A DNA stretch of 58,174 bases from Candidatus Gastranaerophilales bacterium (GTDB lineage: Bacteria; Cyanobacteriota; Vampirovibrionia; Gastranaerophilales; JAILCC01): assembly GCA_028696075.1 (NCBI GenBank), contig JAQVHS010000013.1:1-58174 (forward strand), in the 5' to 3' direction. The translations under genes and the position numbers were made by a program. Numbering within the stretch: the stretch's first letter is position 1; each line of letters starts with the position of its first letter. Of this stretch, positions 7,976 to 58,174 are shown piece after piece. The notes beneath the pieces were generated by a model. The model saw only the letters and a program-made list of their open reading frames with translations, had not been told where the DNA came from and made no database searches.

Positions 7976-8005
7976 GGGCTATCCCCCTCTTCAATACCTG
8001 GTTAA

Positions 8006-8034
8006 ATTATATAATGGCAAACATTAATTTACAA
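8006..8034 (-). promoter_or_regulatory. Sigma-70 promoter for gcvPB
   Basis: On the minus strand, -35 TTGTAA (8029-8034) and -10 TATAAT (8006-8011) are separated by 17 nt. It points at gcvPB and is arranged back to back with the peptidase promoter. Confidence 0.7.
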
Positions 8035-8052
8035 ATGCGTAAATTAAAGCAA

Positions 8053-8080
8053 TTTTGAAAGATTATTATTTTTATATAAT
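8053..8080 (+). promoter_or_regulatory. Probable promoter for the M16 peptidase gene
   Basis: A perfect -10 TATAAT (8075-8080) has a weak -35 TTTTGA at 16-nt spacing. It sits 23 nt before the peptidase start codon. Confidence 0.5.
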
Positions 8081-8103
8081 ATAAGGGTAGCAAGGTTGTA
8101 TAC

Positions 8104-45855: not shown

Positions 45856-46860
45856 ATGCAAGAAAAAACAGCAGCAATAGTAGGATGCGGAATATGGGGA
45901 AGAAATCTGGTGCGTAATTTTTACGCTTTAGGCGCCCTTCATACAGTATGCGACCTAGATTTTGAAAATTTAAAAATAGTGAAGGAAAATTACGAAGGAG
46001 TTTGTTTAACATCAGACTTCGAAAGTTTACTTAACTCAAAAGAAATACAGGCTATTATAATTGCTACCCCGAGCCATACCCACTACCATCTTGTTAAAAA
46101 AGCGCTTCTTGCAGGAAAACACGTCTATGTGGAAAAACCAATTGCAACAAGCGCGAAGGAAGCGTTTGAACTTAATAAACTGGCACAAAAAAACGACCTG
46201 ACTTTAATGGTAGGACACTTGCTGCTTTATCATCCTGCCGTAAACAGGCTTAGAGAAATTGTACAAAGCGGAGCTTTAGGCGAAGTTAGTTATGCACAAA
46301 GCGACCGTTTAAATGTAAATTACTTTAAAAACGACCGCAGCGTAATGTGGGATTTAGCTCCGCATGATTTGTCTATGATGTCCTACGTTGTGGGCAAAGA
46401 CCCTATTAATGTAATTTCGGCAGTCGGCTGCTCTTCGGATAAAAACGATATTATGGATATAGTTCACCTTGGTATCAAATTTGAGGATGGCGTAACGGCA
46501 CATATTTCAAACAGCTGGATTACGCCTGCGAAGCACGTTCGCCTTATGGTCAGGGGTACAAAGGCAACTGCGATTTTGGATGACACTCTTCAGGAAAACA
46601 AGTTGATAATATTTGACAACTTTGCACCGGGTCAACAAAATGTAGAATATCCCGATTATCTTGAAATTGAACCCTTAAAGCTTGAGTGTCAACATTTCTT
46701 ATCCTGTATTAAAACAGGTCAAACGCCCAGAACAGACGGTGAAAACGGCTACAAGGTGGTGAAAATACTTGAGCAGGCTGACAAAATTATGTTGGGCGCA
46801 AAATTAAAAGAACTTGATAAAGTCAAATTTTCCTCTTCAAGAAGTAAAGCCAACGTTTAA
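45856..46860 (+). CDS. Gfo/Idh/MocA-family NAD(P)-dependent oxidoreductase
   Basis: The N-terminal Rossmann fold begins A-A-I-V-G-C-G-I-W-G-R-N-L. The family signature K-H-V-Y-V-E-K-P-I-A (catalytic Lys) lies near residue 95 and is followed by a C-terminal alpha/beta domain with W-D-L-A-P-H-D-L near 170, the pattern of sugar-nucleotide 3-dehydrogenases such as WbpB/WlbA. The role is probably oxidation of a sugar or UDP-sugar for surface polysaccharide. Length 334 is normal. The next gene (Cys cluster) begins 3 nt after its stop, so the two are co-transcribed. Confidence 0.88.
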   Translation: MQEKTAAIVGCGIWGRNLVRNFYALGALHTVCDLDFENLKIVKENYEGVCLTSDFESLLNSKEIQAIIIATPSHTHYHLVKKALLAGKHVYVEKPIATSAKEAFELNKLAQKNDLTLMVGHLLLYHPAVNRLREIVQSGALGEVSYAQSDRLNVNYFKNDRSVMWDLAPHDLSMMSYVVGKDPINVISAVGCSSDKNDIMDIVHLGIKFEDGVTAHISNSWITPAKHVRLMVRGTKATAILDDTLQENKLIIFDNFAPGQQNVEYPDYLEIEPLKLECQHFLSCIKTGQTPRTDGENGYKVVKILEQADKIMLGAKLKELDKVKFSSSRSKANV

Positions 46861-46863
46861 TTA

Positions 46864-47259
46864 ATGTTAATAAAATACCTTAAAGTTTTATATTACGAAT
46901 TTTTATCGAACTTTGTTATTCAAAAAGTCCGCTACAAGGTTACGGGCGAATGCAAAAAATGCGGCAAATGCTGCAATTATATGTATTCAAAAGATACTTA
47001 TACAGAAAAAGAGTTTAAAATAATGCAATTTTTATATCCTGCATATAAAAGGTTTGAGGTCAGAGGTTGGGATGAAGACGGGAATATAATTATAGGCTGT
47101 AAACTGGTAAACAAAGACGGTACGTGCAGCGTCTATAACAAACGATTAAGAATGTGCAGGCGATATCCCGAAAAAATTATCTATTTCAGAGGCGAACTTC
47201 ATGAAGGCTGCGGGTATAAAATAGAACCCGAAAAGAGTTTTGAGGATTACCTTAATTAA
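46864..47259 (+). CDS. YkgJ-like Cys-cluster protein (putative Fe/Zn-binding)
   Basis: The signature G-E-C-K-K-C-G-K-C-C, then a later C (I-I-G-C-K-L) and the pair G-T-C-S-V-Y ... R-M-C-R-R-Y-P and G-C-G-Y-K, is that of the YkgJ/CxxCxxCC family, which binds a metal cluster. An N-terminal stretch (Y-L-K-V-L-Y-Y-E-F-L-S-N-F-V-I-Q) may touch the membrane. The precise role is unknown. It is coupled to the oxidoreductase gene (3 nt gap) and is the last protein gene before tRNA-Ser. Confidence 0.85.
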   Translation: MLIKYLKVLYYEFLSNFVIQKVRYKVTGECKKCGKCCNYMYSKDTYTEKEFKIMQFLYPAYKRFEVRGWDEDGNIIIGCKLVNKDGTCSVYNKRLRMCRRYPEKIIYFRGELHEGCGYKIEPEKSFEDYLN

Positions 47260-47267
47260 TAATAATT

Positions 47268-47295
47268 TTGGAAATAAAGATTTTTGTCGTATAAT
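47268..47295 (+). promoter_or_regulatory. Promoter of tRNA-Ser
   Basis: -35 TTGGAA (47268-47273) and perfect -10 TATAAT (47290-47295), 16 nt apart. The start point would be a few bases before the tRNA. Confidence 0.75.
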
Positions 47296-47309
47296 TTTTT
47301 TAAGCCAAT

Positions 47310-47394
47310 GGAGAGATGTCCGAGTGGTTGAAGGTGCAGACCTGGAACGTCTGTGTATCGCAAGGTACCGAGGGTTCGAATCCCTCTCTCTCCG
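47310..47394 (+). tRNA. tRNA-Ser (anticodon GGA)
   Basis: The acceptor stem GGAGAGA/TCTCTCC with discriminator G encloses a class II tRNA with a long variable arm (about 14 nt). The anticodon stem CAGAC/GTCTG carries loop CTGGAAC, so the anticodon is GGA (reads UCC/UCU). The T arm has GGTTCGAATCC. CCA is not encoded. A strong terminator follows, and accessory DNA begins about 10 nt beyond it. Confidence 0.97.
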
Positions 47395-47403
47395 GTTTTA
47401 AGT

Positions 47404-47431
47404 CCACCATTCAGAGAATGGTGGCTTTTTT
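47404..47431 (+). terminator. Terminator of tRNA-Ser
   Basis: The perfect 9-bp stem CCACCATTC/GAATGGTGG with an AGA loop is followed by C and six T. Confidence 0.92.
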
Positions 47432-47440
47432 GTTTGCTAT

Positions 47441-47581
47441 AATGCCAGACGGGTGGGGCTTATGACTGCTTTTTCAGAAAAGAGAATTTTTTAAGCACAA
47501 TTTTTTAAGAATTTTAGAGCAATTTTTTGCAAAATTCTCTTTTGGAAATTTTCGTGGTGCCCAACATTCAAATCTGGCATT
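47441..47581. repeat. 141-nt nested inverted-repeat element at the core/accessory border
   Basis: The ends are AATGCCAGA (47441-47449) and TCTGGCATT (47573-47581), a perfect 9-bp inverted repeat. Inside, GGGC on the left faces GCCC on the right, and AAAAGAGAATTTT (47478-47490) faces AAAATTCTCTTTT (47531-47543), a perfect 13-bp inverted repeat. No ORF is inside. It looks like a small non-autonomous element or a recombination/attachment structure; it lies between tRNA-Ser and the recombinase-bearing block. The rest of this 270-nt gap (to 47665) is featureless AT-rich DNA. Confidence 0.65.
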
Positions 47582-47665
47582 TCTATATTACCCAAAATAC
47601 CATTGCAAATTGGCACGGCAATTTATGTCATATAAAATGTTAAATAATTTTGATAGTAAACATCC

Positions 47666-47869
47666 TTAATTTAAATGCTTACTATCAATAAACATATTAT
47701 TTAAAATATCGGCATTTTTTCGTAAAAATTGAACAACCGGTGTAATATTATCAAGCTCTTCAATTTCTCTATGACCTGAGCAAAAATAATCTATAACAAT
47801 GCTCGTATTATAAATATCATCAACTAATTTGTGAAGTTGTTTAAATTCATCCTGTGTAAAATTGTACAT
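47666..47869 (-). CDS. 67-residue protein of unknown function
   Basis: A small acidic, helical protein: M-Y-N-F-T-Q-D-E-F-K-Q-L-H-K-L-V-D ... V-V-Q-F-L-R-K-N-A-D-I-L-N-N-M-F. AGGAG is 6 nt before the ATG. It follows the recombinase gene after 12 nt on the same strand, so it is the last gene of that unit. It may be a recombination directionality factor or simply cargo; I recognise no family. Confidence 0.6.
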   Translation of the reverse strand: MYNFTQDEFKQLHKLVDDIYNTSIVIDYFCSGHREIEELDNITPVVQFLRKNADILNNMFIDSKHLN

Positions 47870-47881
47870 ATTAATCTCCTG

Positions 47882-49519
47882 TTAAAGTTTAGCCATTTTA
47901 TACAATTCTTTGAGTGTCAAACCTAGATCTTGAGTACCATTTAGTATGGCTTCAATAATATTTGGCGGTAAAAATCTCAACCTCATTAATCTTTTAATAT
48001 AGCTGTCAGTTCTTAGTTCCTTTGAAAGCTTCTCTTCTTTAAGGAGCTTATGATAATAAAAACCTTTTGTAATAGCTCGAATTAAAGTGAAATTATACTC
48101 AACTTTATTATGCCCAATAACAATCTTTGTACCTTTTTGATGACAGGGCGAAAGATTTACCTCATAACTAAATTCCAATAAACAATTGTCTTTAGTTTCA
48201 AAATTCATCAATTGACCATACGTTACAGCTTCTACAGCCTTTACAAGTAAATCATTATACAGAGAAATATGTACTTTGTTTTCAGAAACTATAGCCTTAT
48301 TTAAAACGGTACGTATAAATACATTATCAGGATTGTAAGTTTCTAAAAAATTCAAAACGGCTTTTTGCTTTTTTAATGTCATACCCGATAAATATTTAAT
48401 CATCTGAGCTTTGTTTTTAACAAGCTCTGCGAATTTTAACCTTATAAAATCCTCAATTTCTCCTGCAGGAATTTTGGATATATTTCCGGCTTCATGCTGG
48501 CGGTTTTGTAGTAATGCTTGGCTTATATAATATCTGTAACAAGCACCGTGACGATTTCTACTATGTGATGGTGACATAACATTACCCTTGTCATCATAAA
48601 TTTTACCTGCTAACAAAGATACATGTTTTGCACCGATGGAATGTTTTTGGCGAATAGTATTTTCATCTAAAATGTTCTGCACCTTTTCAAAAACTTTTTC
48701 GTCAACAATACCATCATGCAGCCCCTCATAAACCTCATTTTTATGTGTAATTTTACCAATATATATTTTATTTCTAAGCAACTTATGCAGATGACCTTTA
48801 TAAAAAATTTTGTCTGTTTTAGTATGAATTTCATTTTCGATTAGGTAATCGTGCAGTTTAGAAACGCTTCTAAGTTCAATGTATTTTTCAAATATATGCC
48901 TGATTTTGGAGGATTGTTCCTTATCTTCAAGCAGAACACCATCTTTTTTTATGTATCCAATAGAAGGATTGCCATGCATAAACATTCCTTTTTTACGTGA
49001 TGCTGCAAACTTGTCGCGAATTCTTTCGCCTGTAACTTCCCTTTCAAATTGTGCAAAAGAAAGCAGAATATTTAATGTAAGTCTTCCCATAGATGTCGTT
49101 GTATTAAATTGCTGCGTTATAGATACAAAAAAAGTTTCGTGCTTGTCTAAAACATCTACTATTTTTGCAAAATCCATTAATGAACGGGTAAGCCTGTCTA
49201 CTTTATAAACAACCACGATATCAATTTCATCGTTTTCGATATCATTCAATAACTCTTTAAAAGCAGGACGTTCCATTGTTCCGCCTGAAAACCCGCCGTC
49301 ATTATATTGTTTTTCTACCAAAACCCAACCCTCATGCATTTGGGATTTAATGTAGGCTTCTCCAGCTTCACGCTGAGCATCAAGGGAATTGAAATCTTGC
49401 TCCAAGCCTTCTTCCGAAGATTTTCTTGTGTAAACAGCACAGCGATATTTGCGAGTTGATAAATATTCGGTTTTTGTGGTGACGGTACTATTACCTGATT
49501 TAATCTGTTTCTTGTTCAT
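47882..49519 (-). CDS. Large serine recombinase (site-specific integrase type)
   Basis: The N-terminal resolvase catalytic domain has the nucleophile Ser in Y-T-R-K-S-S-E-E-G-L near residue 35, and the partners V-Y-K-V-D-R-L-T-R-S near 108. The Recombinase domain follows (about 190-290, I-G-Y-I-K-K-D-G). A zinc-ribbon/coiled-coil part covers about 300-420, and a long C-terminal part about 450-545. At 545 residues it is of the large type used by phages and integrative elements. It is on the leftward strand after DUF2924 and the DUF2779 nuclease. It probably inserted or excised this accessory block; the attachment sites are not identified. Confidence 0.93.
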   Translation of the reverse strand: MNKKQIKSGNSTVTTKTEYLSTRKYRCAVYTRKSSEEGLEQDFNSLDAQREAGEAYIKSQMHEGWVLVEKQYNDGGFSGGTMERPAFKELLNDIENDEIDIVVVYKVDRLTRSLMDFAKIVDVLDKHETFFVSITQQFNTTTSMGRLTLNILLSFAQFEREVTGERIRDKFAASRKKGMFMHGNPSIGYIKKDGVLLEDKEQSSKIRHIFEKYIELRSVSKLHDYLIENEIHTKTDKIFYKGHLHKLLRNKIYIGKITHKNEVYEGLHDGIVDEKVFEKVQNILDENTIRQKHSIGAKHVSLLAGKIYDDKGNVMSPSHSRNRHGACYRYYISQALLQNRQHEAGNISKIPAGEIEDFIRLKFAELVKNKAQMIKYLSGMTLKKQKAVLNFLETYNPDNVFIRTVLNKAIVSENKVHISLYNDLLVKAVEAVTYGQLMNFETKDNCLLEFSYEVNLSPCHQKGTKIVIGHNKVEYNFTLIRAITKGFYYHKLLKEEKLSKELRTDSYIKRLMRLRFLPPNIIEAILNGTQDLGLTLKELYKMAKL

Positions 49520-49578
49520 GCTGTATCTATCACTCTAAGAAGGAATTAAATCAAGCTTTTATATCCAAATTGAAAAAA

Positions 49579-51042
49579 TCAAGATAGTTTCTTGCTTGAA
49601 TATTCATTTAAAACATCCAGCAATTTAACCATAGCCAAGGTATCCTGACCGCAATATTCCAATAAATTTTCGAATAAATCATCAGATTCCGGCACAAGCC
49701 CTTTCAAAAAATCCAAATACTGACTTGAAGCATCACTCCCGTTATTAATTGCTAAATTTGCGTAACTTATATCGGTGAATGCAGGAAGTGTCTTCTTAAT
49801 AGATGATGAACCATATTGTTCATAGTTATATAGCATACGTTTGCGAAACGGCACAATCAAGTCAACTACACGATTATTAATCTCAAAAAGCTCTTGAGCA
49901 TATACAGAGAAACTCTCTGCCAGCTTCTTATTGACCGTCTTTTCAAACCCCTGATTATAAACAACTATGGAGCCGTTAGTAGAGCAAGATGTTATAAGTT
50001 TTTTGATTAACTCTTCTCTCGGGTCAGTTTGTTTTTCATGCAAAAATTCAACGTGCTCAAGCTGAGAATCAGGAGAATTTAAAATATGCAGAGAAAATTG
50101 AAAGGGAATTTGCTGATATGGGGAAGTCCCTTCAAATAAAGGTATAGCACTGCATATCGTTTCATAATCTAAAAAGTAAAGCGGATATTCTAATGCAGCA
50201 AGGAAATCTGCTATTTTATCAACTTCAACAATAGTTCTTTCATCCAAAAAACAGTTAATCTCTTCGCTTTTTCTCTCGTTTAAAAACAATTCTCTTGGCA
50301 GTTTTTGCAAGTCAGCAGTTTTATATTTGCGAAAGATTTCTACTGCCTTTTCCATTTTCATCACATCAAAAACAGAATAATCTGGAATATTTTGCCAGCA
50401 ATGGTCAATATATTGACAATCGAAGAAATATGAGCAAGCACCTCCTATTTCACAAGCAGGTTCTGCAGCCGTTTGCATATCTCTGACTAACTCTAATCCT
50501 TGAGGAAGATTCTTCGCCAATTTAACAACATCCTCTGTCACTTCGTTGTAGTTGAAGAATTCAAACGGGTCAATATCACCTTTGCGTACATACTGGTTAT
50601 TTACAGTTACAATATAGCAGGATTTAATATTGTAGCCAGCGTTTGTAAAAACATAATACTGAAAGGATAAATCAATTAAATGGTACTCTTTGACTTTTGT
50701 AGAAGATTTTACCTCAATAATATTCCACGAACCATCTTCATTCCGTTTAAGAATATCGGCTGCACAGTATTCTCCTGTTTCGGTTTTAGCAACAGCTTCA
50801 AAAATAGCAGTTACGCCATCTTCCACAAATTTTCCTGTTTGAACAATTGCAGCATCTTCCCAAGGTTTATGGTGAACTAATTTCCCGTCCTTATAAAGTT
50901 TATGGGCTAAGAGTCCTACTTCATTACCCTGGCTTAAAATTCCATCATTAAATTCGGAGCACAAATCAGGTCTATGCTTTTTATACCAAAGTGCCAACGG
51001 ACATTTTAAACCTAAAATATAATCTGATTTTGATATTTTCAT
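49579..51042 (-). CDS. DUF2779 protein: Cas4/PD-(D/E)XK-like plus DEDD-exonuclease-like domains
   Basis: The N-terminal half looks like a RecB/Cas4-type nuclease: L-G-L-K-C-P-L-A-L-W (Cys 14), A-A-D-I-L ... I-I-E-V-K-S-S (D ... E-x-K), and then a Cys group C-E-I-G-G-A-C-S-Y-F-F-D-C ... H-C-W near residues 196-215, fitting an Fe-S cluster tied to Cys 14. The C-terminal half has the DEDD exonuclease signs L-D-Y-E-T near 300 and C-G-Q-D-T near 470. Both halves fit DUF2779. It likely degrades DNA; a role in recombination or defence of the element is inferred from its place between the recombinase and DUF2924 genes. Confidence 0.85.
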   Translation of the reverse strand: MKISKSDYILGLKCPLALWYKKHRPDLCSEFNDGILSQGNEVGLLAHKLYKDGKLVHHKPWEDAAIVQTGKFVEDGVTAIFEAVAKTETGEYCAADILKRNEDGSWNIIEVKSSTKVKEYHLIDLSFQYYVFTNAGYNIKSCYIVTVNNQYVRKGDIDPFEFFNYNEVTEDVVKLAKNLPQGLELVRDMQTAAEPACEIGGACSYFFDCQYIDHCWQNIPDYSVFDVMKMEKAVEIFRKYKTADLQKLPRELFLNERKSEEINCFLDERTIVEVDKIADFLAALEYPLYFLDYETICSAIPLFEGTSPYQQIPFQFSLHILNSPDSQLEHVEFLHEKQTDPREELIKKLITSCSTNGSIVVYNQGFEKTVNKKLAESFSVYAQELFEINNRVVDLIVPFRKRMLYNYEQYGSSSIKKTLPAFTDISYANLAINNGSDASSQYLDFLKGLVPESDDLFENLLEYCGQDTLAMVKLLDVLNEYSSKKLS

Positions 51043-51161
51043 AAAAACCTTTCTCTATTATTTTATTATATTACAGGATGATTAGACTACAAGACTACTT
51101 GTAAAATCATCTGCAACAATTAGGTTTATTATAATTTATCCGTACGACAATTTCGAGCATA

Positions 51162-51485
51162 TTAATTATTTACCCCGAAGAAGACTTTACCGTTCCAACG
51201 GGTACCTGTGATTTTGTTTGCAATAGCAGAAAGACTTCTATAATTTTCACCTTTGTATTCAAAACCTTTTTCGGTTGAAATAACTTCATGTTTTTTACCT
51301 TTAAATTCACGAATCAGTTTGACACCCGTAGAAATTTTTACTGCTTTTTCTCCCATTATTTTAAAATTCTGCGTTTTTTCATACTGTTCAATCATCTTAT
51401 TTAATTTGCGTTTTGTTTTGGGTGATAAATCATCATATTTTTCATGCCAAGCTTTTAATTTTTGTCCAACAGTTTGTTTTTTCAT
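51162..51485 (-). CDS. DUF2924 protein, recombinase-associated
   Basis: Matches DUF2924: T-G-V-K-L-I-R-E-F-K-G-K-K-H-E-V near the middle and F-E-Y-K-G-E-N-Y-R-S-L-S-A-I-A-N-K-I-T-G-T-R-W-N-G at the end. The family is regularly found next to serine recombinases in prophages, and it is here too, upstream of the recombinase and the DUF2779 gene. The start is 51485, with a perfect AAGGAGG 5 nt upstream; an in-frame ATG 16 codons earlier would translate the ribosome-binding site. The protein is basic at the N-terminus and probably binds DNA. Confidence 0.85.
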   Translation of the reverse strand: MKKQTVGQKLKAWHEKYDDLSPKTKRKLNKMIEQYEKTQNFKIMGEKAVKISTGVKLIREFKGKKHEVISTEKGFEYKGENYRSLSAIANKITGTRWNGKVFFGVNN

Positions 51486-51618
51486 AGAACCTCCTTTTTT
51501 TATATTTATCACTTTTCTAAATAAAAATATCAAGCTACAAAAGGATTTCCCGACATAATTTGTATCAAGAAAAGAAATTATTTTTCAAACATTCAACCTT
51601 TTTCCTAATTTTTATATA

Positions 51619-51638
51619 GATGCATTTTTGCATGCATC
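51619..51638. promoter_or_regulatory. Inverted repeat in the divergent DUF2924/methyltransferase promoter
   Basis: GATGCAT ... ATGCATC, a perfect 7-bp inverted repeat with a 6-nt gap, lies next to a TATATA word and 50 nt before the methyltransferase start. It is a likely repressor or control-protein site for one or both divergent genes. Confidence 0.4.
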
Positions 51639-51687
51639 AAAACTCAAAGAAAAATATATGTAATAGAAAAACAGAAAGGAGATTCTT

Positions 51688-52986
51688 ATGAAAGAATTTT
51701 TAAAAAGGTTAGAAATTACCTACAAAAAACCAGGTGATTTAAAACCAAACCCAAAAAATGCAAGGACACACAGCAAGAAGCAGGTGCACCAGATTGCCAA
51801 CTCTATAAAGCAGCTTGGTTTTAACAATCCCATTTTAATTGAATCAGATGGCACAATAATGGCCGGACACGGAAGATTTGAAGCCGCAAAAGAGCTAGGA
51901 CTTGAAGTTATACCAACTATTTGTCTATCTCATATGACACCTGAACAAATACGAGCATACATCATAGCGGATAATCGCTTGGCAGAACAAGCTGGTTGGG
52001 ATAATGATATTTTAAAAATTGAACTGGATTTTTTAATGAATCTTGATTGTGGTTTTGATTTTGATGCAACAATTACCGGATTTGATATTCCGGACATAGA
52101 TTTAATTCTTAACACTGAAGCTATTGAAGAAACTAAGTCAGAAGCAGATGTAGAAGATGAGTTTTTCAAAACCACAATAGAAATCCCAAAGCGTGTAAAT
52201 AAAGACGACTTGTATCAGCTAGGCAAAAATTTCCTTTACTGTGGTGATGCACTTGATGAAACAAGTCTTCAAAAGTTAATGGGACAAGACAGAGCAGAAA
52301 TGATTTTTTGCGATAGCCCTTATAATCTCAAAATTCAAGGCAATGTAACAAAGCAAAAACATCACACAGAGTTTAAACAAGCCTCAGGCGAACTTAGTAG
52401 ATGTGAATTTACAGATTTTCTAAAAACTACAATGACATTGCAGGCAAAATACTCCATTGACGGTGCAATTCATTTCCAATGCATGGATTTTCGCCATATG
52501 GGTGAAATGCTTGAAAGTGGCAGACAAATTTACTCCCAACTCAAAAACCTTTGTATTTGGGATAAAGGAACCGGTGGAATGGGCAGTTTATATCGTTCAC
52601 AGCACGAACTTGTATTTGTGTTCAAAAACGGTACAGCTCCACACATAAACAATGTTGAATTAGGCGTTCATGGGCGTTATCGAACAAACGTCTGGAAATA
52701 TCGTGGTATGCACGCTTGTAATCCTCAATCTAAGACTTTATCCAAACTTCATCCAACAGTCAAGCCTGTTTCAATGATTATGGATGCTATTTTAGATTGC
52801 TCATCACCTGGAGGAATTATCCTGGATGTATTTGGAGGTTCTGGCTCTACGCTTATTGCAGCCGAACGAACAAAGAGAAAAGCCCGTGTAATAGAAATTG
52901 AACCCAAATACTGCGATGTAATTCTTTATCGGTGGGAGCAACTTACAGGTCAAAAAGCCTTATTAGTCAGAAAAACAGGAGATTAA
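51688..52986 (+). CDS. ParB-domain DNA methyltransferase, phage type, with a variant catalytic motif
   Basis: Residues 8-105 are a ParB/sulfiredoxin-like domain (L-K-P-N-P-K-N-A-R-T-H-S, M-A-G-H-G-R-F-E-A-A-K). Residues about 165-420 are an N4/N6 amino-methyltransferase, with motif IV F-C-D-S-P-Y-N-L near residue 210 and the SAM motif V-F-G-G-S-G-S-T-L-I-A-A near 390, i.e. beta-type order. Motif IV reads D-S-P-Y in place of the usual D-P-P-Y, an unusual change at the catalytic loop. The C-terminal L-H-P-T-V-K-P is intact. It starts the rightward DUF5681/terminase unit, 3 nt before the next gene. No restriction enzyme is adjacent. Confidence 0.93.
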   Translation: MKEFLKRLEITYKKPGDLKPNPKNARTHSKKQVHQIANSIKQLGFNNPILIESDGTIMAGHGRFEAAKELGLEVIPTICLSHMTPEQIRAYIIADNRLAEQAGWDNDILKIELDFLMNLDCGFDFDATITGFDIPDIDLILNTEAIEETKSEADVEDEFFKTTIEIPKRVNKDDLYQLGKNFLYCGDALDETSLQKLMGQDRAEMIFCDSPYNLKIQGNVTKQKHHTEFKQASGELSRCEFTDFLKTTMTLQAKYSIDGAIHFQCMDFRHMGEMLESGRQIYSQLKNLCIWDKGTGGMGSLYRSQHELVFVFKNGTAPHINNVELGVHGRYRTNVWKYRGMHACNPQSKTLSKLHPTVKPVSMIMDAILDCSSPGGIILDVFGGSGSTLIAAERTKRKARVIEIEPKYCDVILYRWEQLTGQKALLVRKTGD

Positions 52987-52989
52987 ATT

Positions 52990-53367
52990 ATGACAGAATT
53001 TAACGCAAAAGATTATGAGGTTGGCTATAAGCGCCCACCAACAGAACATCAATTCAAACCTGGACAATCCGGTAATCCCAAAGGTCGCCCGAAATTAATT
53101 AAAGACTTCAAAACCGACCTGCGCGAAGAAATGGAAGAAATTATCACCATAAATAATGGTGAAAAAATCACAAAACAACGCGCTTTACTCAAAAAATTAC
53201 TGGTTAAAGCCCTTAGTGGTGAACTCGGGGCACTAAAAACCCTCACAAATTTGATAGCTCTGCATTTGGGAGGGGAAGAAACAGAGCTTCAAGAATTATC
53301 TGAGGAAGATAAACAGTTATTAAATAAATATATTTACAAAAATACAAAGGAGATAAACCATGAGTAA
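52990..53367 (+). CDS. DUF5681 protein, putative small terminase subunit
   Basis: The signature F-K-P-G-Q-S-G-N-P-K-G-R-P near residue 22 marks DUF5681, commonly found directly before the large terminase in phages. The remainder is helical and charged. It overlaps the large-subunit gene by 8 nt, which supports coupled synthesis. A DNA-recognition role for packaging is inferred from position. Confidence 0.85.
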   Translation: MTEFNAKDYEVGYKRPPTEHQFKPGQSGNPKGRPKLIKDFKTDLREEMEEIITINNGEKITKQRALLKKLLVKALSGELGALKTLTNLIALHLGGEETELQELSEEDKQLLNKYIYKNTKEINHE

Positions 53368-54886
53368 TTTTAAAAGAAAACTTTTATCAGCTGCACTAGC
53401 ACAAGACTTCAACATGTTTTTAGAAAAATGCTACAACGAAATTGATGGCGGAGAAAAATATACTGAAACTATTGCTACAGAGCTAATTATTGACAAACTG
53501 AATTATGTTAGCAATGGAAATACAAAGAGACTTATTATCAACGTACCACCAAGAACACTCAAAACGACCATTGTTTCGATTGCATATACAGCTTGGTTGC
53601 TGGGGCATAACCCAACACTCAAGATTTTATGCATAAGTTACGGGGATGATTTGGCAAAAGATTTCTCATTCAAAACTAAACAAATTATGCGAAGTAAATG
53701 GTATAAAGAAGCTTTTCCTAAAACAAGACTTAAACAAAATCGTCAGCAAGATGACTTTTTTGAAACGACAAGAAATGGATTTAGAAAAGCGGCCTCCCTG
53801 GGTGGAACATTGACTGGATATGGAGCAGATATAATCATTATTGATGACCCACAAAAATCACAGGATATCTGCTCGGAAAAAACCAGAAAAAGTTCAAATG
53901 AAATATTTTCTAACACAATCATTTCACGCCTAAACAATAAAAACGAAGGCAAAATTATTGTAGTTGCACAGAGATTGCACCCAGATGACTTTTCAAACTA
54001 TGTTCAAAAATTTGGCAAGTGGGACGTTCTCTCAATACCTGCAATAGAAGAATCAGATAAATCTTATACTCTTTCTGATGGTAGTATTATTAATCGAAAA
54101 ACCGATGATGTAATAAATTCCGAGCTTGAACCACTAGAAAAACTTAAAGAAATAAAGTCGGGGATGGGTGAGTTTAACTTTTCTGCACAATATCAACAGA
54201 TGCCTATTCCACCTCAAGGCAATATTATAAAATATAAGGACTTTGCTTTTTACGATATACTTCCGCCTTCGGAGAAAATATATATTCAAAGCTGGGATGT
54301 AGCTGCTAAAACGGGTGAAAATAATGACTACTCTGTATGTGTAACAGCTGCTGTTTGCAATAATATTGTATATATTGTCGATATTTTACGTTATAAACTT
54401 GATTTTCCTGACCTTTTGAACAAAGTAAAAGAAATGTATAAAATTTATAATGCGCAAAGAGTCATTATTGAAAATAGTAGCATTGGCCCTGCTTTGATTA
54501 GTCATCTAAGAAAAGAGCTTGTTATCATACCGTATAATCCTACTGAATCTAAGGCTGATAGAGCTATAACCAAAACATACCTTATACGTTCAAGAAACGT
54601 TCTCTTGCCTAAAAATGCCCATTGGCTTGAGCATTTTAAGGATGAGATCCAATCTTTCCCTTATGGAAAACATGATGATCAGGTGGATGCTTTTACTCAA
54701 CTGTTGGACGAGATAGAAAAAGAAAGGCAATCTCCTACATTGAAAAATATGGCTGAAGCAATAAACACACAAAAACAAAAAGAATGGGAAGAAAGTCAAC
54801 ATCCTGAACAATTGAAAAATTTTATGGATATGATAATCAAAAATTATAAAAAGAGGCCTAGAGGCTGGATACCACCACGCTGGTAA
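53360..54886 (+). CDS. Phage terminase large subunit
   Basis: The packaging motor ATPase/nuclease. The ATPase domain has a P-loop N-V-P-P-R-T-L-K-T-T near residue 63 and Walker B I-I-I-I-D-D-P near 160. The nuclease domain is RNase H-like, with Asp in Q-S-W-D-V-A-A-K-T near 310 and the late H-D-D-Q-V-D-A-F near 440. Length 508 is normal. It follows DUF5681 but no portal, protease or capsid gene comes next: 16 nt on, an XRE gene faces the other way. Confidence 0.93.
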   Translation: MSNFKRKLLSAALAQDFNMFLEKCYNEIDGGEKYTETIATELIIDKLNYVSNGNTKRLIINVPPRTLKTTIVSIAYTAWLLGHNPTLKILCISYGDDLAKDFSFKTKQIMRSKWYKEAFPKTRLKQNRQQDDFFETTRNGFRKAASLGGTLTGYGADIIIIDDPQKSQDICSEKTRKSSNEIFSNTIISRLNNKNEGKIIVVAQRLHPDDFSNYVQKFGKWDVLSIPAIEESDKSYTLSDGSIINRKTDDVINSELEPLEKLKEIKSGMGEFNFSAQYQQMPIPPQGNIIKYKDFAFYDILPPSEKIYIQSWDVAAKTGENNDYSVCVTAAVCNNIVYIVDILRYKLDFPDLLNKVKEMYKIYNAQRVIIENSSIGPALISHLRKELVIIPYNPTESKADRAITKTYLIRSRNVLLPKNAHWLEHFKDEIQSFPYGKHDDQVDAFTQLLDEIEKERQSPTLKNMAEAINTQKQKEWEESQHPEQLKNFMDMIIKNYKKRPRGWIPPRW

Positions 54887-54902
54887 AATACCGGAGCTAT
54901 TT

Positions 54903-55115
54903 TTAAAAATCAAATAAATCTTTAACAGGTATTTCGAGTGCTTCGGAAAGTTTTATAATAGTACGAAGGTTAGGAGACTTTTCACATCTTTCGATTTTAC
55001 CTATATAAGATATATCAAGACCAGCCAAAGTGGATAATTTACTTTTAGTAAAACCTTTGGCTTGTCTTATTTCTTGTACTTTTGTTGCAAATTGCTTACA
55101 TATACCATCTTTCAT
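54903..55115 (-). CDS. XRE-family HTH regulator, intact copy
   Basis: A 70-residue helix-turn-helix protein (F-A-T-K-V-Q-E-I-R-Q-A-K-G-F-T-K-S-K-L-S ... D-I-S-Y-I-G-K-I-E-R), a single Cro/C1-type DNA-binding domain. It is divergent from the GIY-YIG gene, and the shared promoter region carries a palindrome (TAGACC-AAA-GGTCTA) that is a plausible operator. A shortened copy of the same gene lies at 56242-56397. It probably represses both itself and the cargo, as in defence or toxin-antitoxin units. Confidence 0.9.
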   Translation of the reverse strand: MKDGICKQFATKVQEIRQAKGFTKSKLSTLAGLDISYIGKIERCEKSPNLRTIIKLSEALEIPVKDLFDF

Positions 55116-55236
55116 TATTTTATTGTGCTATACTCGTTTTAGAAGCGTATAGACCAAAGGTCTAGTTAAAATAAATTGTTACGTCAGGAAATGACGCAGG
55201 CATATGATAAGTTAGGTAATTAAGAAAAACGAAAGG
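55015..55236. repeat. Module copy 1: XRE 5' part plus promoter/leader
   Basis: This segment is repeated in direct orientation at 56297-56525. The first 100 nt are nearly identical (a handful of differences). After the -10 box the two diverge but keep hairpins, the words TATGATAAG and A-rich spacers at matching positions. Confidence 0.85.
55126..55196 (+). promoter_or_regulatory. Promoter and two-hairpin leader of cargo A
   Basis: Extended -10 TGCTATACT (55126-55134) is followed by hairpin 1, TAGACC-AAA-GGTCTA (55150-55164), and hairpin 2, CGTCA-GGAAA-TGACG (55182-55196). The equivalent leader of cargo B has the same order, with changed bases that keep most pairs. Hairpin 1 also overlaps the likely promoter of the divergent XRE gene, so it may be the operator. 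Confidence 0.55.
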
Positions 55237-55244
55237 ATAAAATT

Positions 55245-56024
55245 ATGAAAATGTTAGAAATTACAAAAAAACAAGATAATTTGGAAAAATTTAGTCCGGA
55301 AGTAGCAGCAGAATTAAAATACTACGTATATAGATTAATTGACCCGAGAAATGGACAAACTTTTTATGTGGGAAAGGGTAAAAATAATAGAGTATTTGCT
55401 CATGCTCTTGATGCTTTAAAATCTTATGAGAATGAAAAATATTTTAATAATGAAGGTGATGAAGATGATATATCTATAAAAATTAAAACTGTACGCGAGA
55501 TTCGCAATGCAGGATTGAATGTACTTCATGTTATTCATCGCTGGGGGCTGGAAGAAAAAGAAGCTTTTGAGGTTGAAAGTGCTGTAATAGACTGTTATCC
55601 CGGGCTAACAAATTTACAGAGTGGTCATAATAGTGATAGGGGTGTTGCCAATGCAATCACAATAGAAAGTACAATTTCCAGAAAATGTTATGATGAACCT
55701 GAAGACATTAACTATATAATAATTAAAACATCCCAACAGCGAGTTGAGGATTGTGGTGGCAGTTTATATGATGCAACTCGTGGTTGTTGGAAAATCAATA
55801 AAGCAAATGCCGAAAAATGTAAATATATTTTAAGTGTTATAGATGGAATAGTTAAAGAAGTATATGAAGTTCACGGATGGCATAAGAGCCCATCTTGTGA
55901 CAACAGGTCTGAATTTGATGGCATAAAAGCTCCTGATAATATACGCAATATTTTTATTGAAAAACGTATTCCTGCTAAATATAGAATGAAAGGCAGTGCA
56001 AATCCTGTAACTTATAAGAAATAA
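55245..56024 (+). CDS. GIY-YIG nuclease-like protein with a C-terminal accessory domain (cargo A)
   Basis: Residues about 26-130 form a GIY-YIG domain of the COG3680/LEM-3-like type: Y-Y-V-Y-R-L-I-D-P near 28, F-Y-V-G-K-G-K-N-N-R-V-F-A-H near 41, and later E-K-E-A-F-E-V-E with the catalytic-type Glu. Residues about 155-259 are a second domain, L-Y-D-A-T-R-G-C-W-K-I ... I-V-K-E-V-Y-E-V-H-G-W, ending G-S-A-N-P-V-T-Y. I remember similar C-terminal pieces in several restriction-type proteins, but have not checked. Likely a DNA-cutting effector. AAAGGA precedes the ATG by 8 nt. It sits between the XRE gene and remnants of the WYL gene. Confidence 0.85.
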   Translation: MKMLEITKKQDNLEKFSPEVAAELKYYVYRLIDPRNGQTFYVGKGKNNRVFAHALDALKSYENEKYFNNEGDEDDISIKIKTVREIRNAGLNVLHVIHRWGLEEKEAFEVESAVIDCYPGLTNLQSGHNSDRGVANAITIESTISRKCYDEPEDINYIIIKTSQQRVEDCGGSLYDATRGCWKINKANAEKCKYILSVIDGIVKEVYEVHGWHKSPSCDNRSEFDGIKAPDNIRNIFIEKRIPAKYRMKGSANPVTYKK

Positions 56025-56046
56025 CATATAAGTATGATAAGTCCAA

Positions 56047-56079
56047 CCATAACTGCATCGATTTATGACGCAGTTATGG
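56047..56079. promoter_or_regulatory. 10-bp hairpin downstream of cargo A
   Basis: CCATAACTGC and GCAGTTATGG pair perfectly across a 13-nt loop containing GAC. The equivalent hairpin after cargo B (57863-57891) keeps AACT/AGTT and the word GACGCAGTT. No T run follows, so it is not a standard terminator; it may be a recombination or processing site. Confidence 0.5.
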
Positions 56080-56096
56080 TAATAAAAATGGAAAAG

Positions 56097-56201
56097 ATGA
56101 ACGAACAAATGCACATATTTATCCCATATCAGAAAAATAATGAGCATCACGAAGACCTCTTAACAAGAGCGTTTTTGCAAATTGTCGATAGTAAATTGTG
56201 A
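56097..56201 (+). pseudogene. 34-codon ORF, probable start of a lost gene (copy 1)
   Basis: The frame reads M-N-E-Q-M-H-I-F-I-P-Y ... H-E-D-L-L-T-R-A-F-L-Q-I-V-D-S-K-L and stops. Its start region aligns with the ORF at 57912 (M-N-K-Y-M-N-I-F), and the final I-V-D-S-K-L matches out-of-frame I-V-N-G-K-L codons in the second copy. L-L-T-R-A-F-L is the type of N-terminal motif seen in larger proteins. This looks like the stump of a third gene that once lay in the module. Confidence 0.35.
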
Positions 56202-56241
56202 AAATACATTTAATAATATGTTGATACCTCAATTCAGGATT

Positions 56242-56397
56242 TCAGAAGAAAATGTCAAGATTAACTAAAGCAGAACAAATATAGTGTGCCCATTTGTCAA
56301 GACCAGCCAAAGTAGACAATTTACTTTTAGTAAAACCTTTGGCTTGTCTTATTTCTTGTACTTTTGTTGCAAATTGCTTACAGATATCCTCTTTCAT
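56242..56397 (-). pseudogene. Truncated XRE regulator, fused to antisense WYL remnant
   Basis: The first 34 codons match the intact XRE gene at 54903 with two changes (M-K-E-D-I-C versus M-K-D-G-I-C). Identity ends abruptly after A-G-L-D at about 56297. The frame then runs 17 codons through the reverse of the WYL-start remnant to a TGA. The second helix of the HTH and the whole C-terminal half are gone, so it should not bind DNA as a normal repressor. It marks the deletion joint between two module copies. Confidence 0.8.
56252..56284 (+). pseudogene. Remnant of the WYL regulator gene start
   Basis: The words ATGTCAAGATTA and the following codons (M-S-R-L-T-K-A-E-Q-I, then TAG) match the opening of the WYL gene at 58051 (M-S-R-L-A-K-T-E-E-I). 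The upstream 60-70 nt, with GAAGAAAATG and ATACATTTAATAATATGTTG, also align. Homology stops at about 56281 where the XRE remnant begins. Confidence 0.75.
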
Positions 56398-56525
56398 TAC
56401 CTTATTGTGCTATACTTGCTTTATAATGTTATAGACTTGCAGTCCAATAAAAACAATTTGTTACGACAAGAACTGTCGCAACGGTATGATAAGATGAGCA
56501 AGTAATAGAAATAAAAGGAGTAATA
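56297..56525. repeat. Module copy 2: XRE 5' part plus promoter/leader
   Basis: Direct repeat of 55015-55236; see that entry. It carries the same extended -10 box and two hairpins, and drives a different cargo. Confidence 0.85.
56408..56478 (+). promoter_or_regulatory. Promoter and two-hairpin leader of cargo B
   Basis: Extended -10 TGCTATACT (56408-56416) is followed by hairpin 1, AGACT-TGC-AGTCC (56433-56445, four pairs kept), and hairpin 2, CGACA-AGAAC-TGTCG (56464-56478, five pairs). Compared with copy 1, a C-G pair of hairpin 1 has become T-A, and a T-A pair of hairpin 2 has become A-T: pairing is kept while the bases change. Confidence 0.55.
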
Positions 56526-56527
56526 TT

Positions 56528-56695
56528 ATGGCCGAAAAAAAATTTTATGCAAAAATTTACATTAAAACAGTTGCTAATCCTGTTATCGTTGAGGTATTTG
56601 CTGAAAACTCTCTAATAGCTAAAAAAATTATTGAGGCGAGATCCGAGTTTAAATCTTTTTATATTATGCCCCAAGCACGTGATTTCTTTTCATAA
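56528..56695 (+). CDS. 55-residue protein preceding the PD-(D/E)XK gene (cargo B)
   Basis: Reads M-A-E-K-K-F-Y-A-K-I-Y-I-K-T-V-A-N-P-V-I-V-E-V-F and on to Q-A-R-D-F-F-S. It is strand-rich at the start with a helix (N-S-L-I-A-K-K-I-I-E-A-R). AAAGGAG lies 8 nt before the ATG. It is too short for an enzyme; an antitoxin, inhibitor or nuclease partner would fit its place 57 nt ahead of the nuclease gene. I recognise no family. Confidence 0.65.
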   Translation: MAEKKFYAKIYIKTVANPVIVEVFAENSLIAKKIIEARSEFKSFYIMPQARDFFS

Positions 56696-56752
56696 TGAAC
56701 AAACTTAAAATAAAAATCAAAGTTTAAGTGAAATATTAACAAAGGAGAAACA

Positions 56753-57877
56753 ATGGAAGTAATTACAAAAGATTCAAATACAGTAAAAATAGTCGAAACC
56801 TTGTTGAAAAAAGCAGCTGACATTAAGAAAAAATACGATACAATTGCTCAAGCAACAGGTAGTAACTTTAATATATTTGAATTGATAAATGTTGCCGACG
56901 ACGAAGTGCGTATGTGTCGAGTCTTGGCAGATTTACTTAATCCCAATGGTACCCATCGCCAAGGACGCATATATCTTGATTTGTTTTTTGATATTGTTTT
57001 GGGGATAAAAAGACCTAATACTAATCATATAGAAATTAAAAGAGAGGATGTAATAGATAACAATAGAAGAATTGATATTGTTATTAAATACGACAAGAAT
57101 ATTATTCCAATAGAAGTCAAAATTAACGCAGGTGATCAGCATAATCAGCTGTACGATTATGCTCAAAAAAGTAAAGGTTCAGGGATACCAAAAGTTTATT
57201 ATCTTACAAAGTTTGGGACAAGACCGTCATATGAGAGCTGCTGCAACAGTTTAAAAAATAAGCAGCTAAAAGATGACGATATTTGTTGTATTTCTTGGTC
57301 TCAAGACATTTTAAAATGGCTTAATGTATGTTTATCTCACTATAATTCATATACAAAAGCATCAATACGCGAAATATTAATCCAATTTATTGCAGTAATA
57401 CGAAAGTTTACAGAACAATTAGAGGAGAATGAAAAAATGGAAATTCAAGAATTACTATTAAAAACACCTGAAAATATGAAAAGCGCAAATGATATAGCAA
57501 TAGCTTTAGATAGCCTAAAAATTGATTTATTAGAAAAATTTCGGTCAAAACTTGAAGCAAACCTTACTGAAAAAATAAAAAAACCTGATGAAGTCAATGG
57601 AAACAGAAATTCTTGGAATCTTGGATACAAATTAAGCTCTATTGATGGAAATATTCGTGTAGTTAGAATAAGTTATGAAAATAAAGCAGTGCGGAAACTC
57701 TTGCAAATCTTAAGTAATGATTGGAAAACTTACTATAAAACAGAAGAAACAAATGAGATTTTTTCTCTGTCAAATGATTCTTTTTATGAATTAGTAATCG
57801 ATGAACAGTTAAATATAATTATTCAAGATTGTACAAAATGGATTGCTGATAAATTAAATGACACAACTAAGTCATAA
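56753..57877 (+). CDS. PD-(D/E)XK nuclease-superfamily protein (cargo B)
   Basis: The pattern F-N-I-F-E-L-I-N-V-A-D-D-E-V-R-M-C-R-V-L-A-D-L-L-N-P-N-G-T-H near residues 40-70, then R-R-I-D-I-V-I near 110 (catalytic Asp) and P-I-E-V-K-I-N-A-G-D-Q-H-N-Q-L near 122 (E-x-K), is that of the PD-(D/E)XK family PF14281. The C-terminal half (about 230-374) is helical, with N-R-N-S-W-N-L-G-Y. GGAGAA precedes the ATG by 6 nt. Effectors of this type occur in phage-defence islands. The stop codon lies inside the downstream hairpin. Confidence 0.88.
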   Translation: MEVITKDSNTVKIVETLLKKAADIKKKYDTIAQATGSNFNIFELINVADDEVRMCRVLADLLNPNGTHRQGRIYLDLFFDIVLGIKRPNTNHIEIKREDVIDNNRRIDIVIKYDKNIIPIEVKINAGDQHNQLYDYAQKSKGSGIPKVYYLTKFGTRPSYESCCNSLKNKQLKDDDICCISWSQDILKWLNVCLSHYNSYTKASIREILIQFIAVIRKFTEQLEENEKMEIQELLLKTPENMKSANDIAIALDSLKIDLLEKFRSKLEANLTEKIKKPDEVNGNRNSWNLGYKLSSIDGNIRVVRISYENKAVRKLLQILSNDWKTYYKTEETNEIFSLSNDSFYELVIDEQLNIIIQDCTKWIADKLNDTTKS

Positions 57878-57891
57878 ATTGACGCAGTTGT
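57863..57891. promoter_or_regulatory. Hairpin overlapping the end of the PD-(D/E)XK gene
   Basis: ACAACT-AA-GTC-loop-GAC-GC-AGTTGT: two stems with a symmetric 2-nt internal loop. It corresponds to the hairpin after cargo A (56047-56079) and shares the word TGACGCAGTT. It contains the gene's stop codon. Confidence 0.45.
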
Positions 57892-57911
57892 ACTGTATAA
57901 TAAAAATAAAG

Positions 57912-57986
57912 ATGAACAAATACATGAACATATTTTTTAATATGCTTAAAGAAGAATTTATTAAAAAATCCTGCGAAGGATTGTAA
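57912..57986 (+). pseudogene. 24-codon ORF, probable start of a lost gene (copy 2)
   Basis: Reads M-N-K-Y-M-N-I-F-F-N-M-L-K-E-E-F and stops at TAA. The start region is homologous to the ORF at 56097, but the rest has been shifted and shortened. Together the two suggest that a third gene once occupied this slot of the module. Confidence 0.3.
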
Positions 57987-58050
57987 ATGGTAAATTGTAC
58001 AAATGTATTTAATAATCTGTTGCAACCTCAGTTAAATATTTTGGAGGAAA

Positions 58051-58174
58051 ATGTCAAGATTAGCTAAAACTGAAGAAATAATTCAGCTGGCAATGCTTTT
58101 TCAGAATAGTTATTGCGGCCTTTCTATTGATAATATTAAAGAACATTTTGAATGTTCTCGCCGCAGTGCCGAGC
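58051..58174 (+). CDS. WYL-type transcriptional regulator, N-terminal HTH part (runs off the window)
   Basis: The first 41 codons are M-S-R-L-A-K-T-E-E-I-I-Q-L-A-M-L-F-Q ... G-L-S-I-D-N-I ... C-S-R-R-S-A-E, the winged-helix start typical of WYL-domain regulators. GGAGG lies 5 nt before the ATG. WYL proteins often sense nucleic acids or ligands and control phage-defence genes. The WYL domain itself would lie outside the window, so the family call rests on the HTH pattern. The remnant at 56252 shows that this gene once followed cargo A as well. Confidence 0.75.
   Translation, partial: MSRLAKTEEIIQLAMLFQNSYCGLSIDNIKEHFECSRRSAE

What the first reader, a model, noticed from the sequence alone, without database searches (positions are those of the whole stretch)
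56242..56397. Deletion joint: truncated XRE fused tail-to-tail with a truncated WYL start
Within 15 nt (56281-56297) the sequence changes from WYL-gene start (plus strand) to XRE interior (minus strand). This is the scar expected if two complete modules stood in tandem and the regulators between them were deleted, or if a new module was inserted into an old one. It gives the order of events. The 51-codon chimeric ORF could still make a short N-terminal XRE peptide.
Basis: seen in the sequence. Interest (0 to 1): 0.5.

Follow-up and report, generated by a model that had tools for sequence, protein, structure and literature searches.

The report
Scar joining two phage-defence gene slots
At this spot two defence-gene slots of a phage-like element lie in tandem, separated by cut-down remains of two regulator genes while the control sites survive, so one outer pair of regulators can probably run both defence genes.

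Summary
The joint is real in the contig: a 10-codon WYL start (56252-56281), about 15 nt of unplaced sequence, then the first 34 codons of an XRE gene on the minus strand (to 56397). Relatives show the parent unit: XRE(-) | promoter | cargo nuclease(s) | WYL(+), seen in 18 of 51 loci examined, most of them picked for their WYL. Cargo 1 matches PD-T4-3, cargo 2 PDC-S26. Both slots keep differently deleted remains of a third gene. Two operators were deduced: op1 goes with XRE, op2 occurs with and without XRE and has the half-sites and 7-nt spacing of the published site of DriD, a WYL activator. The promoter behind the joint keeps both, so regulator genes were lost but control sites were not; the outer XRE and WYL can probably act on both slots. 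One tandem duplication of the slot plus a cargo swap gives the same structure with one joint and fits the mosaic (XRE stub 94% identical, promoter 73%). Among 33 WYL starts in 383 genomes one other is a stub. A new variant of known WYL-regulated defence islands. Expression, binding and read support are untested.

The parts
54903..55115 (-). XRE1, intact 70-aa Cro/CI-type regulator, left bracket of the array
   Evidence: HTH_3 E 3e-11; relatives in the same place and orientation in 18 of 51 loci
55150..55164 (.). op1 of promoter P1 (TAGAC-N5-GTCTA, 10/10), assigned to XRE
55182..55196. op2 of P1 (CGTC-N7-GACG, 9/9 by the score), assigned to WYL
55245..56024 (+). cargo 1, GIY-YIG protein of the PD-T4-3 type
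   Evidence: PADLOC PD-T4-3 E 8e-67; Pfam LEM-3_GIY-YIG E 4e-13
56097..56177 (+). N-terminal remnant (27 codons) of a third cargo gene
   Evidence: tblastn to the full-length G013 gene, 81%, E 2e-8
56182..56262 (+). C-terminal remnant (codons 416-442) of the same gene
   Evidence: 67%, E 3e-5
56252..56281 (+). WYL1 stub, first 10 codons, then TAG
56282..56296 (.). about 15 nt of sequence of unknown origin at the joint
   Evidence: unique in the genome with up to 1 mismatch; no match of 9 nt or more within 53000-58174 for the 26 nt around the joint
56297..56397 (-). XRE2 stub, first 34 codons
   Evidence: 94% aa identity to XRE1, E 3e-16
56242..56397 (-). 51-codon chimeric ORF (34 XRE codons + 17 others)
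56432..56446 (.). op1 of promoter P2 (9/10), kept after the joint
56464..56478 (.). op2 of P2 (CGACAAGAACTGTCG = CGAC-N7-GTCG), kept; same core and spacing as the DriD consensus
56528..56695 (+). 55-aa ORF, first gene behind P2; 80% identical homologue in the G013 cassette
   Evidence: no family match
56753..57877 (+). cargo 2, PD-(D/E)XK nuclease of the PDC-S26 type
   Evidence: PADLOC PDC-S26 E 8e-68; PDDEXK_4 E 5e-30
57870..57884 (.). op2-like site before the second remnant and WYL2 (8/9)
57942..58061 (+). C-terminal remnant (codons 403-442) of the third cargo in slot 2, with an interior stop; deletion end points differ from slot 1
58051..58174 (+). WYL2 start (41 codons), right bracket, cut by the contig end; codons 235-322 of a WYL of this family begin contig C21 of the same genome

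Best explanation
The joint is the scar between two slots of one defence cassette type carried by a prophage-like element of Candidatus Gastranaerophilales. The parent unit is XRE(-) | divergent promoter with two operators | exchangeable defence cargo | WYL(+). Inferred regulation: XRE binds op1 and represses; the WYL protein, a full-length relative of the ssDNA-responsive activator DriD, binds op2 at the -35 side of the cargo promoters and switches the nucleases on when ssDNA appears. Most economical origin (inferred): one illegitimate tandem duplication of the segment from XRE codon 34 to WYL codon 10 made XRE-slot-WYL stub | XRE stub-slot-WYL in one step; later recombination with a diverged cassette replaced promoter, cargo and tail of one copy; the shared third cargo was then deleted separately in each copy. 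The outer XRE is intact, the outer WYL intact as far as the contig goes, and both promoters keep both operators, so the two slots probably remain one regulon.
For: XRE(-) and WYL(+) bracket cargo in 18 of 51 loci; the commonest PDC-S26 model matches 26 of 39 cargo proteins of these 18 loci. op1 scores 9-10 of 10 in 20 of 20 XRE-type promoters (18 loci + P1 + P2), 34-35 nt from the XRE start (mean 9.85, shuffles 6.51), and is at shuffle level in 10 XRE-less promoters (6.60 against 6.59) and before 32 WYL genes (6.19 against 6.45). In 10 further XRE loci where no WYL of this family was found in the stretch fetched, op1 stands at the same spot at 9/10 or better in 8. op2 is above shuffles in all three sets (7.95/5.36, 7.10/5.35, 6.19/5.18). 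Half-site spacing 7 is singled out: 19 of 20 XRE-type promoters reach 7/8, against at most 3 of 20 at any other spacing from 3 to 12. WYL matches PDB 8tp8/9pfq over its whole length (E 5e-42), with RRSAERM against RRTAERM; the DriD consensus is ATACGAC(X)7GTCGTAT (PMC12340889, passages). P2 keeps op1 (9/10) and op2 (9/9). Mosaic: XRE1 and XRE2 stub differ at 6 of 102 sites, the adjacent promoters at 26 of 96 (Fisher p 7e-5); the ratio 0.22 is the lowest of 205 pairs (next 0.53, median 1.14).
Against: No binding or expression data. Neither a simple duplicated slot nor an intact complete tandem was found, so the origin rests on parsimony. Across all 210 pairs the W1-W2 residual in a straight-line fit is only about -1.1 SD, 27th lowest; only three other pairs have coding identity of 0.94 or more (their promoters are 0.93-0.97 identical). 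Gene conversion after a deletion would give the same mosaic. The 20 promoters are not independent (some loci are near-identical), and shuffles were mononucleotide. The bracket is not universal: XRE relatives stand beside PDC-S26-like genes without a WYL of this family in the stretches fetched (L129-L132, L135), and one XRE locus, L134, has no op1 while L135 has 8/10. op2 is weak or absent before many WYL genes and in 5 of 10 XRE-less promoters. DriD is an activator, but BrxR and CapW are repressors (CapW recalled), so the sign of op2 is open. WYL2 is broken by a contig gap; C21 is linked only by inference.
Confidence: 0.5

Rival explanations
1. Two complete modules stood in tandem and a deletion from WYL1 codon 10 to XRE2 codon 34 removed the inner regulators; the outer copies made them redundant.
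For: Same final structure. A WYL start stub between two cargos exists in a second genome (L094 = G360:C90), and a 46%-identical homologue of the cargo behind that stub follows an intact WYL directly in L165, so inner WYLs can be lost by deletion.
Against: Needs two illegitimate joints instead of one. No intact WYL-XRE tail-to-tail pair in the fetched stretches of the 18 XRE-type loci. If module 2 came from elsewhere, the XRE stub should be as diverged as its promoter, which it is not, unless gene conversion followed.
Confidence: 0.3
2. A circularised cassette fragment (XRE codon 34 to WYL codon 10, ends ligated with filler) integrated by a single crossover into a resident cassette.
For: Predicts both stubs, the joint and the mosaic in one step; XRE stub and XRE1 share a 65-nt identical run.
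Against: No circular donor or free joint was seen; the joint 29-mer is absent from viral contigs and genome contigs.
Confidence: 0.1
3. Assembly chimera: two cassettes of different strains or elements were joined by the assembler.
For: The genome is a 21-contig assembly and the contig breaks inside the next WYL.
Against: The filler has no close match in the 49 sequences scanned, and chimeras normally form at shared sequence (general knowledge); a WYL stub recurs in another genome.
Confidence: 0.07
4. The stubs are functional: the 51-aa peptide or an antisense transcript from the XRE2 promoter controls slot 1.
For: ATG and 34 XRE codons are kept, and the frame stays open for 17 more codons.
Against: No Pfam HTH match; the stub ends before the recognition helix (recalled); the joint was found in no relative, so conservation cannot be tested.
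Confidence: 0.03

Closest known systems
BrxR/CapW-type WYL regulators of defence islands (PMC9122601 passages seen; PMC9122588 listing and start of abstract only)
   Same: WYL protein with a helix-turn-helix beside defence genes; palindromic sites at promoters
   Different: A second regulator (XRE) with its own operator brackets the cargo here; cargo is exchangeable between the two; the main text of PMC9122601 holds neither 'XRE' nor 'tandem'
DriD of Caulobacter (PMC12340889 passages seen)
   Same: Full-length sequence relationship, nearly identical recognition-helix motif, same half-site and 7-nt spacing
   Different: DriD acts on DNA-damage genes; here the sites head defence cargo in a phage-like element; ssDNA response untested
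Prophage and satellite defence hotspots of P2/P4 (PMC9122126, listing and start of abstract only)
   Same: Variable defence genes at a fixed place of a phage-like element
   Different: Here the hotspot is bracketed by its own regulators, and two slots are joined by regulator stubs
PD-T4-3 and PDC-S26 (PADLOC models)
   Same: Cargo 1 and 2 match with E 8e-67 and 8e-68
   Different: Activity of these proteins untested; a search for the name PDC-S26 found no paper

Membership tests
DriD-type homodimeric WYL regulator | HTH + WYL + WCX over the whole length | tested here: met
   WYL and WCX Pfam matches for the G013 relative P0001; profile positions 3-316 match 8tp8/9pfq, E 5e-42. The window holds only the first 41 codons. 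That 8tp8/9pfq are DriD is recalled.
DriD-type homodimeric WYL regulator | Target site ACGAC-N7-GTCGT near the -35 element | tested here: met
   CGWC-N7-GWCG at 7/8 or better in 19 of 20 XRE-type and 5 of 10 other promoters, and in 5 of 10 further XRE loci without this WYL in the stretch fetched; binding itself not tested
DriD-type homodimeric WYL regulator | Activation by ssDNA | not testable with these tools
   needs biochemistry
PD-T4-3 defence protein | Match to the PADLOC model over full length | tested here: met
   residues 13-258 on 3-253 of 256, E 8e-67
PDC-S26 candidate defence protein | Match to the PADLOC model / PDDEXK_4 | tested here: met
   E 8e-68, residues 13-369; PDDEXK_4 E 5e-30
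Deletion scar between complete tandem modules | A relative with both inner regulators intact at the same place | tested here: not met
   none in the fetched stretches of 18 XRE-type loci; no genome of the same genus among the 60 relatives
Deletion scar between complete tandem modules | Short homology at the breakpoints | tested here: inconclusive
   about 15 nt of filler instead; TGTCAAGA occurs at the WYL start and at the XRE edge, but matches of 8 nt or more are common by chance

The most novel reading that the evidence does not exclude
XRE and WYL act both as regulators and as homology arms of a cargo slot that is swapped and multiplied by recombination. In the window the stubs are direct repeats of the intact outer genes: recombination between XRE1 and the XRE2 stub would pop out cargo 1, and between the WYL1 stub and WYL2 would pop out cargo 2, each time leaving one intact regulated cassette. 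The array would be a reversible two-shot defence locus driven by one ssDNA-responsive WYL switch. The XRE repeat (65-nt identical run) is a plausible substrate; the WYL repeat (79%) is a poorer one.
Probability: 0.2. Interest if true: 0.7.

Novelty: new variant of a known kind. Interest (0 to 1): 0.45.

Why it matters
It shows a concrete route by which defence genes pile up under one control: the operators are kept and surplus regulators are lost. The two operator assignments give short, testable DNA sites for an unexplored regulator pair in an uncultured, mostly gut-associated lineage, and suggest that ssDNA could be the trigger for these nucleases.

Tried and rejected
Close WYL relatives in viral contigs: none with one query, one 44% relative with the alignment; phage records: three matches of 24-30% identity, none covering 80% of the query. 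Exact joint in viral contigs and genome contigs: none. Templated filler: no match of 9 nt or more in 53000-58174 for the 26 nt around the joint, whereas 183 of 300 shuffles have one. A first WYL-start regex was mis-spaced and missed true WYL starts, so its result was discarded and replaced by a profile. att repeats between window 46801-47900 and the first 1700 nt of C21: longest exact match 12 nt, not convincing. Structure of the third cargo (four-row alignment): mean pLDDT 38, not used; no PDB sequence relative at E 1. L088 looked like a tandem of two WYL modules, but unrelated genes lie between them. The XRE search in 383 genomes at E 1e-15 does not list even the window's own stub, so it says nothing on XRE stubs elsewhere. 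Considered and rejected: the conserved stretch before the third-cargo remnant of slot 2 as a terminator hairpin; an op2-like site lies there at 57870.

Full report
WHAT WAS CHECKED. The window is the whole contig C13 of a 21-contig genome assembly. Of the 47 named relatives found with the WYL alignment, the titles are of metagenome-type assemblies, many named Candidatus Gastranaerophilales or Melainabacteria. At the reported place a WYL start (ATG 56252) runs for ten codons and stops at a TAG. About 15 nt later the minus-strand coding sequence of an XRE gene begins and runs to its ATG at 56397. Both sides are far above chance: 79% over 101 nt to the second WYL start region (E 4e-20) and 82% over 234 nt to the first XRE and its promoter (E 5e-63). 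The 15-mer at the joint has no other match with up to one mismatch in the genome; the 16-mer has none with up to two mismatches elsewhere in the 49 sequences.

THE PARENT UNIT. One search was given 51 loci, most of them fetched because of a WYL hit. 48 hold a WYL of this family, and in 18 (17 genomes) an XRE relative lies upstream on the opposite strand with cargo genes in between. The G013 locus L023 has MTase, a DUF5681-like gene (by eye), terminase, XRE, 97-aa ORF, 55-aa ORF, PDC-S26 nuclease and WYL in much the order seen in the window. Of 39 cargo proteins of 130 aa or more from the 18 loci, 26 match the commonest PDC-S26 model; 2 match UzuA, and one each mad3 and PtuA models. In the window cargo 1 is PD-T4-3-like and cargo 2 PDC-S26-like. 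Many cassettes hold several cargo genes before one WYL, so multi-cargo arrays are normal; what is unusual in the window is the regulator debris between them. The bracket is not universal: five XRE loci (L129-L132, L135) hold PDC-S26-like genes beside XRE but no WYL of this family in the stretches fetched.

HOW RARE IS THE DEBRIS. A profile of WYL starts run on 49 sequences found only two starts (E below 0.01) without the rest of a WYL: the window (E 4e-5) and L094 = G360:C90 (E 2e-8). A degenerate pattern run on 383 genomes of the order found 33 starts in 29 genomes, none with the reversed control pattern. Compared with the WYL positions belong to a WYL (one of them, WYL2 of the window, cut by the contig end) and two are stubs, the same two. 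In L094 a 16-codon ORF, of which 13 codons are clearly WYL, lies between two PDC-S26-like cargos, and an intact WYL follows later. A 46%-identical homologue of the cargo behind that stub sits 14 nt after an intact WYL in L165, so there a deletion inside an inner WYL is a natural reading. XRE stubs were looked for only in the 49 sequences; none as close as the window's was seen.

A THIRD CARGO, TWICE LOST. Left of the WYL stub lie 27 N-terminal and 27 C-terminal codons of a gene that is complete (443 aa) in G013:C195, where it overlaps the WYL start. Slot 2 of the window keeps codons 403-442 with an interior stop, and a few codons resembling the N-terminus. The end points differ, so the two losses look independent. 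Relatives of about 50% identity exist in G224, G325 and (incomplete) G059. The protein matches no Pfam, PADLOC, PHROG or NCBIfam family. Its invariant D116, E130 and K132 recall a PD-(D/E)XK centre; that is recalled, not tested, and the structure model was too poor to use.

OPERATORS. Aligned promoters show two palindromes. op1, TAGAC-N5-GTCTA, scores 9 or 10 of 10 in 20 of 20 XRE-type promoters at 34-35 nt from the XRE start. In 10 promoters of modules without XRE, and before 32 WYL genes, it is at shuffle level. op2 is above shuffles in all three sets. In 10 XRE loci outside that set, without a WYL of this family in the stretch fetched, op1 stands at the same spot at 9/10 or better in 8, at 8/10 in L135 and is absent in L134, while op2 at 7/8 or better is found in 5 of 10 (one of the ten, G008, had been in the alignment). 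By association op1 belongs to XRE and op2 to WYL. Independent support: half-sites CGWC and GWCG stand out only at spacing 7 (19 of 20 at 7/8 or better, other spacings at most 3 of 20; in XRE-less promoters 5 of 10 against at most 1). The published DriD site is ATACGAC(X)7GTCGTAT (PMC12340889, passages). The WYL family matches 8tp8/9pfq over its whole length, with RRSAERM against RRTAERM; that these entries are DriD is recalled. The promoter behind the joint, P2, has op1 at 9/10 and op2 as CGACAAGAACTGTCG, with matching arms, where P1 has CGTCAGGAAATGACG: the change is compensated on both arms. Some relatives have op2-like sites before inner cargos, for example L076 at 8812 and L024 at 930.

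ORIGIN. XRE1 and the XRE2 stub differ at 6 of 102 positions (two amino-acid changes, four silent) with a 65-nt identical run, while the adjacent promoter differs at 26 of 96 (Fisher p 7e-5). Among 205 pairs with promoter divergence of at least 0.15 this ratio, 0.22, is the lowest (next 0.53, median 1.14). Against this, a straight-line fit over all 210 pairs gives a residual of only about -1.1 SD, 27th lowest. The pattern says that the stub and its promoter have different histories. A single tandem duplication from XRE codon 34 to WYL codon 10 yields XRE-slot-WYL stub | XRE stub-slot-WYL with one new joint; a later cargo swap explains the diverged promoter (73%) and tail (79%). Deletion between complete modules needs one more joint plus gene conversion. 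I therefore rank duplication plus swap first, without claiming to have excluded deletion.

FUNCTION. Shown: intact outer XRE, start of the outer WYL, two promoters with both operators, two cargo genes of defence-type families. Inferred: XRE represses at op1; WYL acts at op2 in a DriD-like, ssDNA-responsive way; both slots form one regulon; loss of inner regulators is therefore tolerated. Not known: the sign of WYL action, the phages met, and whether the 51-aa ORF is expressed. The rest of WYL2 is not on this contig; contig C21 begins with WYL codons 235-322, which suggests a gap of roughly 580 nt.

NOVELTY. WYL regulators in defence islands are known (PMC9122601, passages), as are phage and satellite hotspots (PMC9122126, listing only). 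In the listings I saw no title or abstract start describing an XRE/WYL-bracketed cassette with both operators or regulator stubs between slots; those lists were capped, and the library lacks most subscription papers. I file it as a new variant of a known kind.

Noticed in passing
window 47309-54886; L126 (C21): Element context: tRNA-Ser(gga), serine integrase, DUF2779 gene, ParB-MTase, DUF5681, terminase, then the defence array; if C21 follows, HydF-like and aspartase-like genes (names recalled from sequence) come soon after WYL, so the element may be a short prophage remnant or satellite without capsid genes.
   Followed up: partly
L063 1688-3368; L088 4496-6191 and 13407-15170 (oriented coordinates): In other cassettes the XRE is replaced by minus-strand genes: a DnaB_C-like ATPase (scanned in L063) and a reverse transcriptase (RVT_1, scanned in L063 and L088; PADLOC retron-type RT models), with op2-like sites but no op1 at the cargo promoter.
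   Followed up: partly
L081 (G001:C20), oriented 6804-10824: A same-family genome has a type IIG restriction-modification-like gene (1090 aa) directly before a WYL that lacks its N-terminal DNA-binding part.
   Followed up: partly
L165 1995-3910: A PDC-S26-like cargo homologue lies 14 nt behind an intact WYL, outside the usual bracket.
   Followed up: partly
G132:C6, G159:C39, G380:C83, G000:C13/C21: Several assemblies break inside or within about 35 nt of this WYL gene, which may reflect strain-variable or repeated cassettes.
   Followed up: no
window 56528-56695; L023 8809-8973: A 55-aa ORF between promoter and nuclease is kept in G013 (80%) and more distantly in L072, L076 and L103; no family match.
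   Followed up: no
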